DNA of 64,000 bases from Betaproteobacteria bacterium (GTDB lineage Bacteria; Pseudomonadota; Gammaproteobacteria; Burkholderiales; Casimicrobiaceae): contig JAAFIS010000002.1 of the NCBI GenBank assembly GCA_013298695.1, forward strand, positions 216,935-280,934, read 5' to 3'. The position numbers and the translations under genes are program-made. Below are positions 4,480-11,447 of this stretch, one piece after another (within the stretch, counting starts at the first letter, position 1; each line of letters begins with the position of its first letter). Below the pieces are notes generated by a model. That model was not told the DNA's origin. It did not search any database and saw nothing but the letters and a program-made list of their open reading frames with translations.

Positions 4480-4905
4480 CTATCCAAACAGCGCCGCGAT
4501 TTCAGAAGGCGGCCGAGCCGGCTTTCGAGTGAGCGCATTCATCGGGCACCAGTGCGTTAAGCCCTCGGCGAGCAGCGCCTGATCACGAGCGCGCAGAATC
4601 CGCGTATGACGCGCGTAGCGCAGGCCACGCGCCGCACCCGTCCACGTGCGCACGATCACCGTGTCACCCAGCAAGGCCTCGGCTTTGTAATCCACTTCAT
4701 GCCGCAGAGCAACCCAAATCATCGCTTCGCGCATCGCGGTCGTGGTGAGCGAATTCCAATGCGCAATGGCCACGTCATTGATCCACGCCACGTAGACCAC
4801 GTTGTTTACATGACCCAGCGCGTCGATGTCCGCGCTCTGCACTTCGCGAATCATGTCGAACGCAGGTAACGGTGAATTAAATGGATTGTCGGCGCTGATT
4901 TGCAT
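4480..4905 (-). CDS. Acyl-CoA thioesterase, hotdog fold (4HBT family)
   Basis: A 141-residue hotdog-fold protein. The YbgC-like active-site stretch is near residues 25-50 (DIDALGHVNNVVYVAWINDV), with the aspartate and the HVNN helix start typical of 4-hydroxybenzoyl-CoA thioesterase relatives. The tail (THWCPMNALTRKPARPP) is also typical. Expected reaction: hydrolysis of an acyl-CoA thioester in the cytoplasm; chain-length preference cannot be read from sequence. It converges with the transglutaminase gene, leaving about 50 bases between the two stop codons, with no evident terminator. Confidence 0.85.
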   Translation of the reverse strand: MQISADNPFNSPLPAFDMIREVQSADIDALGHVNNVVYVAWINDVAIAHWNSLTTTAMREAMIWVALRHEVDYKAEALLGDTVIVRTWTGAARGLRYARHTRILRARDQALLAEGLTHWCPMNALTRKPARPPSEIAALFG

Positions 4906-5028: not shown

Positions 5029-6357
5029 CTATTGTGTACTGACTTGAGGATTGGATTCTTCGATCACCCATCCGATAACCGCTCTCAAAAGGGCTACGCG
5101 CGGAAAAGTCTGTTTAGATGAAATGGCATGAAGTAGCCAACTATTGTTTGCGCCCCGGGGCAACGCAATACTCCAGTGATCGCTTTTTGCGATTGCGAGC
5201 AACTGGCTGTTAGGCAGGATCGAATCGCTTAAGAGAATCTGTCCGTCATTGTCCCCGCCGACACGCTCAAGCTGCCGATACAAGATACGTAGAGGTATTG
5301 CAAAGTCATTCGGTTGGCCTCGAACTGCAATCGAGAAGTAACTAACGCCTTCGGGTTTAACTTGTTCTGTCATCCGCTTACGTCGCTCCAGACGCGTCAC
5401 ACTTGATATGTCGTCACCGTCGGAAGCAGAGCAGTTAAAAGGGTTTACGCGGGGCGATATCGCTCGATAGACGGCTTCGAAGCGATCCGCAAATGGTGAA
5501 CCCATGATCGGTCCAGCAACGGACACAAGTGAGAGCGATTTGCGTTTGCCTGACAGACTCAAATCCAGGATTCGAAGTGCCTCAAGGCTATCAATTACAC
5601 CTTTCGAGTAGCCGACTAGAAGAATTCGATCAATATCGTCGCGGAGCAGCTCTCGATTTATCTCGGAAGCGAGCGTCTTCGCGTTTTCAGTCGAGCGTTG
5701 TCGGCCGGGAAGCGGAACCATGCGCATCGCGCCTAGCCCGAGATCTGAGAAGCTTCCGTAACCGTCACGGGCGATGCGATCTGTTGAACGCGACACGCCA
5801 TCACCAAAAGGTACAGATAGCTCGTTGAGGCAGTCACCAAACATTCCGGGAACGATCAAGACCGCAGTTCGCTTGCGAATCGCTTCACTTTCTGCTGCAC
5901 CGAGCGACGTGCGCACAGGCGTTGGCTCAAGATGTTGTTGATCCTCAAGTTCAAGCCAATCTGCGGCTGAGCGTCGCGGGCGATGCGGGTCTGCGTGGAG
6001 CTCGGCAGTGAACCTCGCTGCAAACGAGCTTCTCATATCCAATACCCCAGCATGGACAATTGGCACACTCACTACGAGCGGTGGCATGGGCTGAAGTGGC
6101 GCGGAGGAACAACCGTACAGAGCAATGAAGCAAGGCAATACAACCGTCGCAGCAATAATTGCTCGTCGTGAGACACGGATTACTGCTTGGAGCAGGCGCG
6201 TACTCCAGCGGCTTTTCAACGAGCGGCAGTTCAAGGGCGCCGTGGATAAAACAGAGCGGCGGTCGCGGCCAACGCATTCAACCTTGAACAACGCATTTCT
6301 TTCAATCAAGTGAATGTGATTAATTAGCGGGGCTGCAGGAGCAAAAAACTTCGACAA
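5029..6357 (-). CDS. Alpha/beta-hydrolase-like predicted lipoprotein
   Basis: Up to 442 residues. A hydrophobic segment ending FIALYGCSS looks like a lipoprotein signal with its cysteine near residue 83, so the true start is probably well inside the frame; only TTG codons are available, among them 6357 and one near 6220. Downstream, VLIVPGMFGDC and IDRILLVGYSKGVIDSLEAL resemble an alpha/beta hydrolase: a possible oxyanion loop and a nucleophile elbow G-Y-S-K-G. A late D-H pair (AKSDHWSIAL) could complete the triad. Last gene of a three-gene lipoprotein operon, 18 bases after the metallophosphoesterase. The substrate is unknown; lipase or esterase activity is inferred. Confidence 0.7.
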   Translation of the reverse strand: MSKFFAPAAPLINHIHLIERNALFKVECVGRDRRSVLSTAPLNCRSLKSRWSTRLLQAVIRVSRRAIIAATVVLPCFIALYGCSSAPLQPMPPLVVSVPIVHAGVLDMRSSFAARFTAELHADPHRPRRSAADWLELEDQQHLEPTPVRTSLGAAESEAIRKRTAVLIVPGMFGDCLNELSVPFGDGVSRSTDRIARDGYGSFSDLGLGAMRMVPLPGRQRSTENAKTLASEINRELLRDDIDRILLVGYSKGVIDSLEALRILDLSLSGKRKSLSLVSVAGPIMGSPFADRFEAVYRAISPRVNPFNCSASDGDDISSVTRLERRKRMTEQVKPEGVSYFSIAVRGQPNDFAIPLRILYRQLERVGGDNDGQILLSDSILPNSQLLAIAKSDHWSIALPRGANNSWLLHAISSKQTFPRVALLRAVIGWVIEESNPQVSTQ

Positions 6358-6375
6358 CTTTGAGACTCTCTTGCG

Positions 6376-8211
6376 CTACTCCATACCTACACTGGCTTCA
6401 CCACGAAAATACTGCTCCAGCCGTCTCTTGGCTTCGCCGCGGTTGCTGTTTCGATCGTCTGGGGTTGATCGGAAATCCAAATTGGCAGACTGTACCGCTC
6501 TACACGTCATGTAAGCGCGAGCCTCTGGCGACGTGAGTTCATCCAGGTGATCGTTGATCGTGGCCACAAGCGTTGCTTTACGTCGAAACGATTCTTTGCT
6601 CTCATTCAGAGTCAACGCCGTCTGCGCCTGCAGCTGCCTTGCGCATGCGGAAAAATCGACAGCCCCACACCACTCGGGCAACTTGATTTCGTAGAGTCGA
6701 TGCACGTGACGTGGAATGTGTTTATCGATCTGCACTAACGCATCGAGAAGTTCGTCTTGATAGGCATGTGCGTGCTCATACATAGGCAACTCGCAGCGAT
6801 CGCAAACCGGCGATAGATACTCAACCAGCCAACTCAACATAGTTCCACGTGCGCTGCGCTGCCGCTCGACCAGTTCGACATCAACGGAGTCGATCTCGGC
6901 CGCCGAAATTCCGGCACGCTCGCAAGTCTGTGTATGCCACGCGGCAAGCAGTTCAACGTCGCTTTCAATAGCACTGGAACCGCGTGGGGAGAGTTCACCG
7001 CGAACAAGCAGGCGTTTCAGTTTTTCATCGTACGCGAAGCTCAGCCGTCGATACGCGATCGGCCAATCAGATAAAGAGCTCATGTTCAGCTCGAGGAGCG
7101 GGCGGCGGTCGAGCGAGCGATGCTCCGCCCAAAAACCCCGATGTGTGTGGCCAGACAAGTACACCAGAGGGTGAGGAAGCGAATTCATCAGGTTGCGCAA
7201 CAGTAACCTCGACGGTAAACCGAGCGATGCCCAATTGTGGTGTCCAGCGAAAACAACAATGTCACCGTTTGTTGCAGCTTCGGTGACCCATGATCTGATC
7301 GCTTCAACCTGGTCGCTGCGAACATGGCCAACGCTTCCGGGGCTGTTCCCGGTTAGAGTTGCCCACGTGCTCACAAGGGCGCCTGCCTGATTGGTATCGA
7401 TACCAACGATGTAGACGCGACGCGTTGCGCCTGGCGCTGCAGGTAGTCGCAAAAGCTGGGCTACATACGAGTTAGCGTACTCATATCCGTCAAGTAACTT
7501 TGCTTCGACAGCGACCAAATAAGCGTTGGCGTCAGAATTGCGCCAACTTACGCTCTGCTTCCCGGACTCTGTTGCTAGAGGTAGAGCCGCGTTTGCAGGA
7601 AGTCGCGCTTGACGAGATAGATAGTCCGCAATAAAGCCGCGTTTGCTGAGCGCCTCGCTAGTGCTTCTATGTCGTAAGTCATCGGGCGCGGCACCCCGGC
7701 GACACGCGTTATTCCATTTGCGCGCGTCGGAATCCAAAATATTGTCTAAGATGTTGTATCCGTAGATGCCAAACATGAGGCCGTCGTGGTTACCTGGCAA
7801 AACCGCGCCGGGTCGCCCTGCATCTTCGAAAATGCGCCCCATCCTTTGAACTTCAACACGACATGAGAGATCAAGGACATCGCCAAGATGGAGAAACGGC
7901 TCCGTGGGATGGTTTCTCAGAGCCCACTCGAGAATGCGGCGCCCAAAAAGCGGTTGCTGTGGGGGACGTTGCGCTACCTCAACGTACGCGTCAACGGAGC
8001 TATCGTTGTCATGCAGTGGAAAGCCAGTTGATAAATGTTCTTGCGTATCACCCACGACCACAATCGGGAGCGTCAGGTTCTCGTAGTTTGCCGAAGGCTC
8101 TGCAGCTGGACCCGGTTGCGGAACAAACTGAGCGCAGGCGGTAAACGTTAAGGAGCATGCCACGATTTGAATCGTTTGGAACAGCTGGGCTCGGCGGATT
8201 AGCGGCGTCAT
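6376..8211 (-). CDS. Metallophosphoesterase predicted lipoprotein
   Basis: A 611-residue protein. The N-terminus has a lipoprotein signal ending SLTFTACAQ. The calcineurin-like phosphoesterase motifs appear in order: GDTQEH near 55, LHLGDVLDL near 108, GNHDG near 141, GHHNW near 322 and SGHTHRG near 354, which together bind two metal ions. The C-terminal 200 residues are helical and charged and I do not recognise them. It starts 7 bases after the phospholipase D-like gene and is followed by a hydrolase lipoprotein, which suggests a role on phospho-esters at the envelope. ATG at 8211. Confidence 0.82.
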   Translation of the reverse strand: MTPLIRRAQLFQTIQIVACSLTFTACAQFVPQPGPAAEPSANYENLTLPIVVVGDTQEHLSTGFPLHDNDSSVDAYVEVAQRPPQQPLFGRRILEWALRNHPTEPFLHLGDVLDLSCRVEVQRMGRIFEDAGRPGAVLPGNHDGLMFGIYGYNILDNILDSDARKWNNACRRGAAPDDLRHRSTSEALSKRGFIADYLSRQARLPANAALPLATESGKQSVSWRNSDANAYLVAVEAKLLDGYEYANSYVAQLLRLPAAPGATRRVYIVGIDTNQAGALVSTWATLTGNSPGSVGHVRSDQVEAIRSWVTEAATNGDIVVFAGHHNWASLGLPSRLLLRNLMNSLPHPLVYLSGHTHRGFWAEHRSLDRRPLLELNMSSLSDWPIAYRRLSFAYDEKLKRLLVRGELSPRGSSAIESDVELLAAWHTQTCERAGISAAEIDSVDVELVERQRSARGTMLSWLVEYLSPVCDRCELPMYEHAHAYQDELLDALVQIDKHIPRHVHRLYEIKLPEWCGAVDFSACARQLQAQTALTLNESKESFRRKATLVATINDHLDELTSPEARAYMTCRAVQSANLDFRSTPDDRNSNRGEAKRRLEQYFRGEASVGME

Positions 8212-8218
8212 CGGCGAC

Positions 8219-9796
8219 TTAATACAAGCTGGGCGGGAAGAGCTTAAAAACGACGTTCACAACACGTTGCCACATATTGCGAGCTGGCTGGGAATAGCGC
8301 ACTGCGCGATCATTTTTCCAGGCCATCTTACCCTCCTCGTCGCGAAAGACTTGCCAGCTATTTTCACCGGAGAAGTCATTCTCCATTCGTACCGCGAGCG
8401 ACTCTGCGAGCCGGGGGCTGTCGATCAGAACTCCCATCTCGCTGTTGAAAACTTCTGAGCGCGAATCCAGATTCATTGATCCAACAAACGAGCGCTGACG
8501 ATCAACGACCATGGCTTTCGTATGAAGTCCTACAAAGTTCGAATTCACTGGCGGGGTCTCAGCAAGGAGCTTTCGGAGTGCGGCATCTGCGCGTAACTCA
8601 AACAACTCTGCGCCAGTCTCCAATATTTTTCCTCGCCAGCGCTCGTAATGACTGTTAACCGCCGGAACATCGTGTGACTCAAGTGAATTAGTCAATATGC
8701 GCACGCGCACCCCACGCTGAGCCAAAGCGCGCAAGTCGGCGATGAAATTCGCGTCCGGGATGATGTACGCATTGGTGATAAGTACCTCGCGTTGAGCCGA
8801 GCGCAAAAAAGCGCGAAACGCTTCGGGCATATGGTTGTGTGTTGCTGCATCGCGCGATGGCGAATCAGTGTGCACCGTGCTTGCCCCGGGAAGTAGAACC
8901 GATGAAAGATTCGAAATTGAGCCACGCCAATCGGTACGTCCCGCTAGCAGCCGACGTCCGTGTTCGTCAGCCTGCACCTGAGCCAATGCCGCAACGGCCG
9001 CACTCGATGGGTTTACGCTTTCTACATTCGCCGCCAAAGGGGGGATTGCCTGCACCCAAGCGCTATTCCAGTATCGGTCGAATACTCCACTTGCCTGTCT
9101 TGCAACGTGACCGACACCGAGGACATCGAGATCATGAAAGTTAAACGATTCGTTCCATCCAAGATACTCGTCGCCGATGTTACGACCACCAAGAATCGTA
9201 ACGGTGTTGTCAGCGATCATTTGTTTGTTGTGCATCCGGCGGTTGAGACGTGAGAAATCGGTAACCAATTCGATCGCGCGCGCCACCGGCGCTCGGTGAG
9301 ACCAACCATTGAAGACTCGGATTGAAATATTCGGATTTCGATCAATTTGAGCTAGCGTTGCATCGCGTAGTTCGACGCTATCCATATCGTGAAGCATCGT
9401 ACTCAAATCGTCAACGAGAATGCGTACGCGAACGCCGCGAGCGGCTGCGGCGATTACGCGCGCCATCAACAGTTGGCCCGACTTGTCTCCGAACCAGACG
9501 TAGTATTGCAGATCAAGAGACTGCTTTGCGTTGTCTATCAAAGCTAGACGCCAGGTAAGCGCAGCTTCGTTTCGCTCCAGCAGTAAGAATCCAGATTTAT
9601 CGCTGCCATGTTTGGAGGCGAACTCGCGCTCGACTCCGGCGAGCAATGTGTCCGAGCTAGGAGCGATCGCGGTTGTCACGGGCAACCGCTCAATCAAAGG
9701 TGATTGGACACATCCGCTGAGAAGAAAACTCAGTAAGGCTGCCGCAGCAACCCGCGCCCCGATTGACGGGACGCGTCGAACATCAAAAAACTTCAC
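8219..9796 (-). CDS. Phospholipase D-family lipoprotein, cardiolipin synthase C-like
   Basis: About 525 residues. The lipoprotein signal ends SFLLSGCVQS. There are two HKD motifs: HNKQMIADN...GGRNIGDEY near residue 195 and HTKAMVVDR...GSMNLDSRSEVFNSEMG near 425. Two HKD motifs define phospholipase D and cardiolipin synthase, and this length and the GGRNIGDEY sequence resemble ClsC-type enzymes, which join phosphatidyl groups from two phospholipids. The GTG at 9796 has AAGG suitably placed upstream; a TTG at 9814 is also in frame. It heads the three-gene lipoprotein operon. Confidence 0.85.
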   Translation of the reverse strand: MKFFDVRRVPSIGARVAAAALLSFLLSGCVQSPLIERLPVTTAIAPSSDTLLAGVEREFASKHGSDKSGFLLLERNEAALTWRLALIDNAKQSLDLQYYVWFGDKSGQLLMARVIAAAARGVRVRILVDDLSTMLHDMDSVELRDATLAQIDRNPNISIRVFNGWSHRAPVARAIELVTDFSRLNRRMHNKQMIADNTVTILGGRNIGDEYLGWNESFNFHDLDVLGVGHVARQASGVFDRYWNSAWVQAIPPLAANVESVNPSSAAVAALAQVQADEHGRRLLAGRTDWRGSISNLSSVLLPGASTVHTDSPSRDAATHNHMPEAFRAFLRSAQREVLITNAYIIPDANFIADLRALAQRGVRVRILTNSLESHDVPAVNSHYERWRGKILETGAELFELRADAALRKLLAETPPVNSNFVGLHTKAMVVDRQRSFVGSMNLDSRSEVFNSEMGVLIDSPRLAESLAVRMENDFSGENSWQVFRDEEGKMAWKNDRAVRYSQPARNMWQRVVNVVFKLFPPSLY

Positions 9797-9849
9797 TTCC
9801 TGCCTTTGGCGCAAACCACCGATTGCGGATCGCGTAAGAATTTAAGTCG

Positions 9850-10560
9850 CTACCAACGCGGTTGCTGGCGATACGGATAGTCGCGTGAAATTTGGCGGCC
9901 CGATGAAATTCGCCGTGCCTGGCTCGAGTCAAGCGTGAAGTGATCACCCGGTCCATAGGTTCGACAGTCGCCCGCGAATTCAGCGTCGCTACAGAACAGC
10001 CAGTAGCCTGACTCGACACGTATTGAGGACGCACGATCATTGAAACCTACCGACGCGAGATTGCGGATGCCTCTTGCGTTAACAACATAGGCTTGACCGT
10101 TTAAGTTTGAACCGGAGAACAGTACGGCGCGAGCGCCATTGCCCCAGTTGCCATCGTTTGCCCAGTTGTCGCTGCCGTTCCAGTTACCGCCTCCGTTGCT
10201 GTTACCGCTATTGCCGCTTTGCCAGCCACCCGCGCCGTCAGGAGTCCAACCTAACTCGCGAATTGAAGATACTTTGTCATTCAGGCCCATTACTCTCAGT
10301 GTGTTGTATCGTCCAGCTCCGAGCGTCACGCATGAGCCGCGAAAAAACGCGTCACTACAAATTTGCCACCGCCCCCTATCGATTACGATTGAAGACGCTC
10401 GGTCGTTGTAGCCCTGCTCAGCCAGATTAGCTACGCTGTTATTTGCGCGAAAATTACGACCGTTGAAGTTGTCGTTTTCAAACAAAACAATGTCTGCGTT
10501 AACGGTTGCGGCCGCCCCTGCCGTGAGCAGCAGCGCGCTAACAAATTGACGAATTTTCAT
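9850..10560 (-). CDS. Secreted beta/gamma-crystallin-fold protein
   Basis: A 236-residue protein with a clean signal peptide (LLLTAGAAATVNA, cleavage near residue 22). Two beta/gamma-crystallin domains follow, each of two Greek-key motifs. Three of the four motifs keep the calcium-binding pattern N/D-N/D-x-x-S/T-S: NDRASS near 52, NDKVSS near 94 and NDRASS near 175. The fourth is degenerate (QARRISS). The domains are joined by a Gly/Asn/Trp-rich linker (about residues 105-140). Family members bind calcium in the periplasm or outside the cell. A strong ribosome site (GAGGAGAAC) precedes the ATG. It ends about 50 bases before the phospholipase D-like gene and may share its transcript. Confidence 0.88.
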   Translation of the reverse strand: MKIRQFVSALLLTAGAAATVNADIVLFENDNFNGRNFRANNSVANLAEQGYNDRASSIVIDRGRWQICSDAFFRGSCVTLGAGRYNTLRVMGLNDKVSSIRELGWTPDGAGGWQSGNSGNSNGGGNWNGSDNWANDGNWGNGARAVLFSGSNLNGQAYVVNARGIRNLASVGFNDRASSIRVESGYWLFCSDAEFAGDCRTYGPGDHFTLDSSQARRISSGRQISRDYPYRQQPRW

Positions 10561-10889: not shown

Positions 10890-11447
10890 GTGCGCCATCA
10901 TTCGCCAATCAACTCGCGCGCACCCACGCACCGCGAATTGTTCGTCGCATTTTTTACCGTGGGCATCAGCGCGTTTGGCGGCGCATTGCCCTGGGCGCGA
11001 CGCGTTGTTGTTGATGATCGAAAGTGGCTTGACGACAAGGCTTTCACCGAGATTCTGACGGTGTGCCAGGCAATCCCTGGGCCGAACGTGATTAACACTG
11101 CGGTGTTTATCGGCGCTAAGTTTCGTGGTATTTCCGGCGCCGTGGTTTCATTCTTGGGTTTGCTCGGTGCGCCTTTTGCCATCGTGCTTATTCTGAGCCA
11201 GCTCTATCACGCGTTTTCGGACATCGCAGCAGTGCGATCGGGAATGAAGGGCATGTCGATTGTCGCAACGGCATATTTGTTTGCGATGTCGCTCAAACTC
11301 GCCAAGCCGTTTCAGAGAAAACCCATCGCTGTTGTGTTGTGCATCGCTGCTGCCATCGCATCAGCTTATTTTCACGTGCACATGGGCTACGTGTTGCTCG
11401 CGGGCGGCTCGGTTGCTGTTGCGCTTTCGAAATGGGGCAAGCTTTGA
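10890..11447 (+). CDS. chrA: Chromate transporter, first half (short-chain CHR protein)
   Basis: A 185-residue membrane protein of the chromate ion transporter family. It starts at GTG 10890. The family signature is present: FFTVGISAFGGALPWARR near residues 20-42 and the conserved CQAIPGPNVIN near 58. Several membrane helices follow. Full-length ChrA has two homologous halves; here each half is its own gene, the short-chain pair arrangement. The second half begins at 11432, inside the end of this one. Substrate may be chromate or another oxyanion; no chrB-type regulator is adjacent. Confidence 0.88.
   Translation: MRHHSPINSRAPTHRELFVAFFTVGISAFGGALPWARRVVVDDRKWLDDKAFTEILTVCQAIPGPNVINTAVFIGAKFRGISGAVVSFLGLLGAPFAIVLILSQLYHAFSDIAAVRSGMKGMSIVATAYLFAMSLKLAKPFQRKPIAVVLCIAAAIASAYFHVHMGYVLLAGGSVAVALSKWGKL

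What the first reader, a model, noticed from the sequence alone, without database searches (positions are those of the whole stretch)
5029..10560. Operon of three predicted envelope lipoproteins behind a crystallin-fold protein
A ClsC-like phospholipase D, a metallophosphoesterase and a GYSKG alpha/beta hydrolase are encoded 7 and 18 bases apart, all with lipoprotein-type N-termini, and a secreted beta/gamma-crystallin gene precedes them. The set could remodel or dismantle phospholipids in the periplasm or outer membrane: one enzyme for the headgroup, one for phosphate esters, one for acyl esters. I do not know this combination.
Basis: inference. Interest (0 to 1): 0.52.

Follow-up and report, generated by a model that had tools for sequence, protein, structure and literature searches.

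The report
Recurrent outer-membrane phospholipid-enzyme lipoprotein operon
A bacterium carries a small, recurring block of three lipid-anchored envelope enzymes that look built to rework or take apart membrane phospholipids at its outer surface; each enzyme type is known, but I found no description of the three working together.

Summary
On the minus strand at 5029-10560 lie a secreted beta/gamma-crystallin gene (CRY) and three genes for probable lipoproteins: a ClsC/ClsO-family phospholipase-D protein (PLD), a metallophosphoesterase (MPE) and an alpha/beta hydrolase (ABH). The three enzymes are not chance neighbours. Of 23 MPE loci (window included), an intact or near-intact PLD lies beside 17, with a remnant in one more; ABH is close in 12, with one remnant. 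Some clusters are rearranged, yet the genes stay together. In 200 same-order genomes, all four PLDs of this subfamily sit in such clusters; unlinked ClsC/ClsO-like proteins form a separate set. Elsewhere ABH and PLD partner with other lipid enzymes: patatin, fatty-acid cis/trans isomerase, DUF748/AsmA, and an unnamed family. ABH belongs to the MGS0156 lipase/carboxylesterase family; MPE has a glycerophosphodiesterase/acid-sphingomyelinase-like fold. PLD resembles ClsO, the surface cardiolipin synthase described in 2026. The block is an insertion relative to congeners. The crystallin is probably not part of it. Best reading: a horizontally spread envelope cassette for phospholipid remodelling or disposal. 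Substrates, products and surface exposure are inferred, not shown.

The parts
8219..9814 (-). PLD: ClsC/ClsO-family lipoprotein, two HKD motifs (H195xK197x4D202, H431xK433x4D438), lipobox LSGC; GTG 9796 is an alternative start
   Evidence: Pfam PLDc_2 x2; 33% identity over 481 columns to E. coli ClsC, E 1e-76; HKD residues invariant in 13 sequences; lipobox
6376..8211 (-). MPE: calcineurin-like metallophosphoesterase lipoprotein with a helical C-terminal region of about 195 residues
   Evidence: Pfam Metallophos E 1.3e-8; 19-row alignment with D111, N141, H142, H324, H355, H357 invariant; AlphaFold pTM 0.82; nearest folds Lmo2642, zebrafish dimetal phosphatase 2nxf, GpdQ, with acid sphingomyelinase below
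5029..6357 (-). ABH: MGS0156-family lipase/carboxylesterase lipoprotein; triad S251-D371-H394 by alignment; a likely true start is TTG 6219
   Evidence: profile vs PDB 5d8m E 2.1e-66; Foldseek E 2.1e-21, TM 0.84 on the target; alignment of 10; starts
9850..10560 (-). CRY: secreted two-domain beta/gamma-crystallin, 35 bp upstream of PLD; probably a neighbour, not a conserved part
   Evidence: Pfam Crystall E 1.3e-31; not conserved with the cluster; absent from this site in congeners

Best explanation
A horizontally acquired cassette of three envelope (probably outer-membrane) lipoproteins that together rework or dispose of phospholipids. Proposed steps: the ClsO-like PLD transfers or releases the phosphatidyl group of PE/PG (to cardiolipin, or to phosphatidic acid); the MPE cleaves a phosphodiester or phosphomonoester of the lipid or of the released headgroup; the MGS0156-type hydrolase removes acyl chains. 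Shown: the genes, their folds and families, intact catalytic motifs, lipoprotein-type N-termini, conserved linkage, swapping of partner lipid enzymes, insertion into this genome. Inferred: outer-membrane placement, substrates, order of steps, benefit to the cell.
For: Linkage: PLD beside 17 of 23 MPE loci plus a remnant in L017; ABH within 2 kb of 12 of 23 plus a remnant in L012; two loci (L016, L023) are cut just after or inside MPE. Linkage survives rearrangement: L042 PLD>, <ABH, <MPE; L021 PLD>, <ABH, MPE>; L022 MPE>, <PLD. Subfamily: in 200 same-order genomes four PLDs score 591-897 bits and all four lie with ABH and either MPE or X; the next best scores 401; one clade against unlinked ClsC/ClsO-like proteins, support 100/99. 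Partner swapping: patatin before PLD-MPE (L018/L019) or in place of PLD (L020); CTI fatty-acid cis/trans isomerase after X-PLD-ABH in L074 (Pfam E 2e-250); DUF748/AsmA-like protein beside the L078 and L011 clusters. ABH is kin to MGS0156, reported with lipase activity on olive oil (PMC5341072, passages). ClsO precedent: lipoprotein, two HKD motifs, surface cardiolipin synthesis (PMC12846801).
Against: No activity, lipid or localisation data for any member. 5 of 23 MPE loci have no PLD and 10 of 23 no ABH nearby (2 of those 10 are cut). 4 of 11 genomes with a strong ABH have neither PLD, X nor LssY next to it (G198, G264, G269, G059), so ABH also works alone or elsewhere. The MPE fold list mixes phosphodiesterases, phosphatases and nucleases, so it does not fix the substrate. 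MGS0156 is promiscuous (polyesters). The cluster PLDs lie on a long branch (1.07) from the others, so ClsO activity may have changed.
Confidence: 0.6

Rival explanations
1. Nutritional: a surface hydrolase set that breaks down lipids, polyesters or phosphoesters from the environment for carbon and phosphate.
For: MGS0156, the solved relative of ABH, hydrolyses olive oil, PLA and PCL (PMC5341072 and PMC11236915 passages); several hosts carry genus names known from activated sludge or fresh water (Accumulibacter, Zoogloea, habitat recalled).
Against: No Pho-box-like site stands out upstream of 15 clusters, 16 stretches tested (best scores reached by 9-100 of 100 shuffles). ClsO acts on the cell's own lipids (PMC12846801). 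CTI and AsmA-like partners fit own-membrane lipids better.
Confidence: 0.2
2. A dedicated producer of cardiolipin or another unusual surface phospholipid, with MPE and ABH as trimming enzymes (for example making lyso- or monolyso-cardiolipin) rather than a disposal route.
For: PLD is ClsC/ClsO-like with both HKD motifs; A. baumannii makes monolyso-cardiolipin (PMC12846801 passage).
Against: A locus with MPE and ABH but a patatin in place of PLD (L020) shows that the set does not always need the synthase.
Confidence: 0.15
3. A conflict system (secreted or delivered lipase/PLD weapon, or phage defence) rather than housekeeping.
For: Patchy distribution and insertion at one site; the patatins score weakly against CBASS phospholipase models.
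Against: Lipoprotein anchors; no immunity or secretion genes recognised beside the clusters in the neighbours examined; no hit in viral contigs; no MPE match in 72,556 plasmid records. PADLOC was not run.
Confidence: 0.04
4. Chance neighbours without joint function.
For: Some MPE loci lack PLD or ABH.
Against: 17 of 23 against about 0.06% expected by my arithmetic; linkage kept through rearrangement; PLD subfamily confined to clusters, 4 of 4.
Confidence: 0.01

Closest known systems
ClsO, surface-exposed outer-membrane cardiolipin synthase of Acinetobacter baumannii (PMC12846801)
   Same: ClsC-like, lipoprotein signal, two HKD motifs, patchy in Proteobacteria
   Different: Here a separate long-branch subfamily, found only in multi-gene clusters in the 200 genomes sampled. 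In the sections and passages I read the paper names no partner genes; its main text has no 'operon' or 'metallophosph'.
E. coli ClsC (YmdC)
   Same: 33% identity, both HKD motifs
   Different: E. coli ClsC is an inner-membrane enzyme in the paper's account and its gene sits beside ymdB, not MPE/ABH
MGS0156 metagenomic carboxylesterase/lipase (PDB 5d8m)
   Same: Same family by sequence and fold; catalytic Ser, Asp, His and two Cys aligned
   Different: About 29% identical; in the passages read, MGS0156 was studied as a lone esterase
GpdQ / Lmo2642 / acid sphingomyelinase metallophosphoesterases
   Same: Fold of the catalytic domain: Z 17.9 (Lmo2642, 320 aligned, 4.4 A), 16.8 (GpdQ, 236, 4.0 A), 15.0 (aSMase 5fic, 272, 4.4 A)
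   Different: 13-15% identity, no meaningful sequence match in PDB; extra cysteine-containing helical C-terminal region; DxQ where GpdQ and aSMase have DxH (recalled)

Membership tests
ClsO (outer-membrane lipoprotein cardiolipin synthase) | Two intact HKD motifs | tested here: met
   HxKx4D at 195-202 and 431-438, invariant in A2
ClsO (outer-membrane lipoprotein cardiolipin synthase) | Lipoprotein signal sequence | tested here: met
   LSGC box after a hydrophobic stretch; 19 of 20 family members. SignalP not available.
ClsO (outer-membrane lipoprotein cardiolipin synthase) | Homology to ClsC / ClsO | tested here: met
   E. coli ClsC 33%, E 1e-76. A. baumannii ClsO itself was not available for comparison.
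ClsO (outer-membrane lipoprotein cardiolipin synthase) | Groups with ClsC/ClsO proteins rather than apart from them | tested here: inconclusive
   Cluster PLDs form their own clade, branch 1.07, support 100/99, against 11 unlinked homologues, E. coli ClsC and one Thiodictyon homologue; the true ClsO was not in the tree
ClsO (outer-membrane lipoprotein cardiolipin synthase) | Makes cardiolipin; outer-membrane, surface-exposed | not testable with these tools
   needs lipid analysis and surface labelling
MGS0156 lipase/carboxylesterase family | Sequence and fold kinship to 5d8m | tested here: met
   E 2.1e-66 by profile; Foldseek TM 0.84 on target
MGS0156 lipase/carboxylesterase family | Ser-Asp-His triad and lid cysteines | tested here: met
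   S251 invariant, D371 and H394 at least 90% in A3; C176 and C309 invariant and aligned to Cys of 5d8m. Disulphide itself not tested.
Calcineurin-like metallophosphoesterase | Pfam Metallophos above cut-off and metal-ligand motifs | tested here: met
   35.9 bits vs cut-off 21.5; GD, GNHD, GHH, HTH motifs invariant
Acid sphingomyelinase / phospholipase-C-type lipid phosphodiesterase | Closest to this branch of the fold rather than to other metallophosphoesterases | tested here: inconclusive
   Z 14.2-15.0 for aSMase and SMPDL3 entries, below Lmo2642, 2nxf, GpdQ and Rv0805 at 16-18
Pho-regulated phosphate scavenging set | Pho box upstream | tested here: not met
   no site convincingly better than shuffles in 16 upstream stretches
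Phospholipid-remodelling gene set including a crystallin | Crystallin conserved with PLD-MPE-ABH | tested here: not met
   a crystallin hit in 1 of the 21 other MPE loci; crystallin genes in 4 of 16 other cluster genomes

The most novel reading that the evidence does not exclude
A horizontally spread, modular surface 'lipid disassembly line': a ClsO-like subfamily specialised to work with an anchored phosphoesterase and an anchored lipase, so that phospholipids misplaced at the outer membrane are converted stepwise to releasable parts. Its slots are interchangeable (MPE, patatin, the unnamed X family, with CTI or AsmA-like proteins added), and it supplements or replaces Mla/PldA-type clean-up.
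Probability: 0.3. Interest if true: 0.75.

Novelty: new variant of a known kind. Interest (0 to 1): 0.5.

Why it matters
Phospholipid synthesis on the cell surface was described in January 2026 (ClsO, PMC12846801). If this cassette acts on the same lipids, surface phospholipid chemistry goes beyond one synthase: there are multi-enzyme sets, carried between bacteria, in which synthase, phosphoesterase and lipase are used together. That makes testable how bacteria with different equipment keep the outer leaflet clear of phospholipids. It also gives a genomic context for a lipase family (MGS0156) discussed so far mainly for plastic degradation.

Tried and rejected
Crystallin as a member: rejected. 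Plasmid or phage carriage of MPE: none found. Pho box: not found. Mobile-element traces at the insertion: no convincing repeats or promoter/terminator excess, and the DNA edges of the insertion could not be placed to the base. X family: no meaningful Pfam, NCBIfam or PDB match; it looked to me like a zinc-dependent phospholipase C (histidine/aspartate pattern, recalled), but nothing tested this, so I leave it unnamed. Is X a diverged MPE? No sign of it. The C-terminal region of MPE was not folded or searched alone.

Papers: searches listed no paper that I recognised as describing PLD+MPE+ABH together; titles and abstract starts only were seen, except PMC12846801 (abstract, sections 13 and 14, passages), PMC5341072 and PMC11236915 (passages). 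Most subscription papers and all preprints are not held.

Rows dropped: A1 leaves out L007 and L019 (near copies of L005 and L018) and L023 (cut). A2 leaves out L007, L019, L017 and L021 (broken PLD). A3 leaves out L020 and the part of L010 after its stop. The tree leaves out L007, L019 and L017. Seven plasmid records have ABH kin; four of seven were opened. The crystallin search used 16 of 19 other cluster genomes (G071, G073, G077 not given). Gene calls come from my own codon-usage script; earlier longest-ORF calls misread GC-rich loci and were discarded.
Full report
WHAT IS THERE. Four genes lie on the minus strand between a thioesterase-like gene (4480-4905, minus) and a chromate-transporter gene (10890-11447, plus): CRY 9850-10560, PLD 8219-9814, MPE 6376-8211, ABH 5029-6357. 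ORF gaps are 35, 7 and 18 bp. PLD has two PLDc_2 domains and both HKD motifs; MPE a Metallophos domain; ABH no Pfam family; CRY two crystallin domains and a secretion signal by eye. The real ABH start is uncertain: TTG 6219 would give a 37-residue signal and a gap of 156 bp.

LIPOPROTEINS. A simple rule (a lipobox-like motif after at least 8 hydrophobic residues of 15) finds a box in 19 of 20 PLD, 21 of 22 MPE and 19 of 25 ABH family members with an N-terminus, and 0 of 3 of the unnamed X family. The window's own boxes are LSGC (strict), FTAC and LYGC (not strict). The residues after the cysteine are not aspartate, which by the E. coli rule (recalled) means outer membrane; the ClsO paper warns that sorting rules vary between species.

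CONSERVED LINKAGE. A search of the named genome collection with MPE gave 21 loci, from Burkholderiales (Paucibacter, Rubrivivax, Hydrogenophaga and unnamed MAGs), Accumulibacter, Zoogloea and Thiodictyon. The order-wide profile search added L042. With the window that is 23. Profile scans of all 23: PLD intact or near-intact beside MPE in 17 (window, L003-L007, L009-L013, L016, L018, L019, L021 with an internal gap, L022, L042), a remnant in L017, none in L008, L014, L015, L020 and L023. ABH near MPE in 12 (window, L003-L007, L010, L013, L017, L020, L021, L042), a remnant in L012, none in the other 10, of which L016 and L023 are cut after or inside MPE. L005/L007 and L018/L019 are near copies, so independent loci are fewer. 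In three loci the genes are rearranged but still together: L042 PLD>, <ABH, <MPE; L021 PLD>, <ABH, MPE>; L022 MPE>, <PLD. Remnants (L012, L017) and an interrupted ABH (L010) point to loss from an ancestral trio.

A CLUSTER-BOUND SUBFAMILY OF PLD. In 200 genomes of the same order the PLD profile gives 45 matches at E<=1e-60 in 35 genomes. Scores fall into two sets: four at 591-897 bits (G000, G153, G045, G127) and the rest at 401 or below. All four of the first set lie in clusters with ABH, and with MPE (G000, G153) or X (G045, G127). In G045 ABH appears split across two contig ends (C87 and C108) and lies on the other strand beyond a DUF748 gene. A tree of 31 proteins puts the 18 cluster PLDs in one clade (support 100/99, branch 1.07) against 11 unlinked homologues, E. 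coli ClsC and a second Thiodictyon PLD. Ten of the 11 unlinked ones also show a lipobox by eye (the other is cut at its N-terminus), so they are probably canonical ClsO; the cluster PLDs are something beside them.

PARTNER SWAPPING. A patatin lipoprotein precedes PLD-MPE in Accumulibacter (L018/L019); in L020 a patatin sits 11 bp before MPE and no PLD is found. A second cluster type, in L046, L074, L078 and (cut) L071, has an unnamed protein X of about 630 residues (no meaningful Pfam, NCBIfam or PDB match), with ABH in all four and PLD in three. In L074 it continues into a fatty-acid cis/trans isomerase (Pfam CTI E 2e-250). A DUF748/AsmA-like gene lies beside L078 and L011. In a third type, two LssY_C-like lipoprotein genes precede ABH: four of four plasmid loci opened, plus G302 and G162 (Pfam LssY_C was run only on L048, the others by BLAST to it). 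Of 11 genomes with a strong ABH, five have PLD or X, two have LssY and four (G198, G264, G269, G059) have none of these. So ABH is the most promiscuous part, and its recognised partners are mostly lipid-type proteins.

THE ENZYMES. ABH: the AlphaFold model (pTM 0.72) and a profile search both point to PDB 5d8m, metagenomic carboxylesterase MGS0156 (E 2.1e-66; TM 0.84 on the target). S251, D371 and H394 align with its triad (Ser232, Asp350, His373 according to PMC11236915, passage) and C176/C309 with cysteines of 5d8m. MGS0156 hydrolysed olive oil and polyesters (PMC5341072, passages). MPE: model pTM 0.82; second-look Z 17.9 Lmo2642, 17.7 2nxf (tied), 16.8 GpdQ, 16.1 Rv0805, 15.0 purple acid phosphatase and acid sphingomyelinase, 14.5 SMPDL3A. 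This says metallophosphoesterase with phosphodiesterase-type neighbours, not which substrate. Metal-ligand motifs are invariant in the 19-row alignment. PLD: 33% identical to E. coli ClsC over nearly its whole length.

HORIZONTAL ARRIVAL. MPE is absent from all 59 other genomes of the near-relative sample, 16 of them congeners, and found in 2 of 399 in the order and 1 of 398 (the window's own genome) in the phylum sample. In five congeners opened, none has a hit to any of the four genes in the stretch taken; in three of the five (L136, L138, L140) the chromate transporter and thioesterase genes are direct neighbours, about 96, 405 and 315 bp apart against 5,984 bp in the window; the other two show no chromate transporter in the stretch. 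The block is therefore an insertion here (or, less simply, was lost in several congeners), though its exact edges and vehicle are unknown. Crystallin genes occur in all six genomes of the genus tested but in only 4 of 16 other cluster genomes, so CRY looks like a host-genus gene that happens to lie, or came to lie, upstream; it may still share a transcript.

MECHANISM. The best-supported reading is an envelope phospholipid remodelling or disposal set: transphosphatidylation or headgroup release by PLD, phosphoester cleavage by MPE, deacylation by ABH. Support is comparative (linkage, subfamily confinement, partner swapping with patatin, CTI and AsmA-like proteins) plus the ClsO precedent (PMC12846801: surface-exposed lipoprotein, thought to use PE and PG that reach the outer leaflet, more active when mlaA is lost). 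Chemistry on the actual substrates is not shown. Rivals: surface feeding on outside lipids (no Pho box found), or a producer of a special lipid; both remain open.

NOVELTY. Each enzyme belongs to a known kind. The combination, the cluster-bound PLD subfamily and the modular swapping were not found in the paper searches made, which do not cover most subscription journals or preprints. I rate it a new variant of a known kind.

Noticed in passing
L046:9586-11475, L074:10569-12491, L078:525-2414, L071:4870-6393: Unnamed family X (about 630 residues) with no meaningful Pfam, NCBIfam or PDB match, near ABH in 4 of 4 and PLD in 3 of 4; by eye a zinc-phospholipase-like pattern and a barrel-like C-terminus.
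   Followed up: partly
   Followed up: partly
L003:6133-6507, L009:9862-10269, L011:9867-10217, L042:14875-15297: A small secreted helical protein family recurs near MPE clusters.
   Followed up: no
L014 and L012 (both in G068): One genome carries two MPE genes, one with PLD and an ABH remnant, the other without PLD.
   Followed up: no
G000 C1, C12, C20 (L153, L160) and congeners: Beta/gamma-crystallin genes are multiplied in this genus, including multi-domain ones.
   Followed up: no
L074:5551-7893: Fatty-acid cis/trans isomerase directly after X-PLD-ABH: a possible link between acyl-chain isomerisation and this lipid set.
   Followed up: partly
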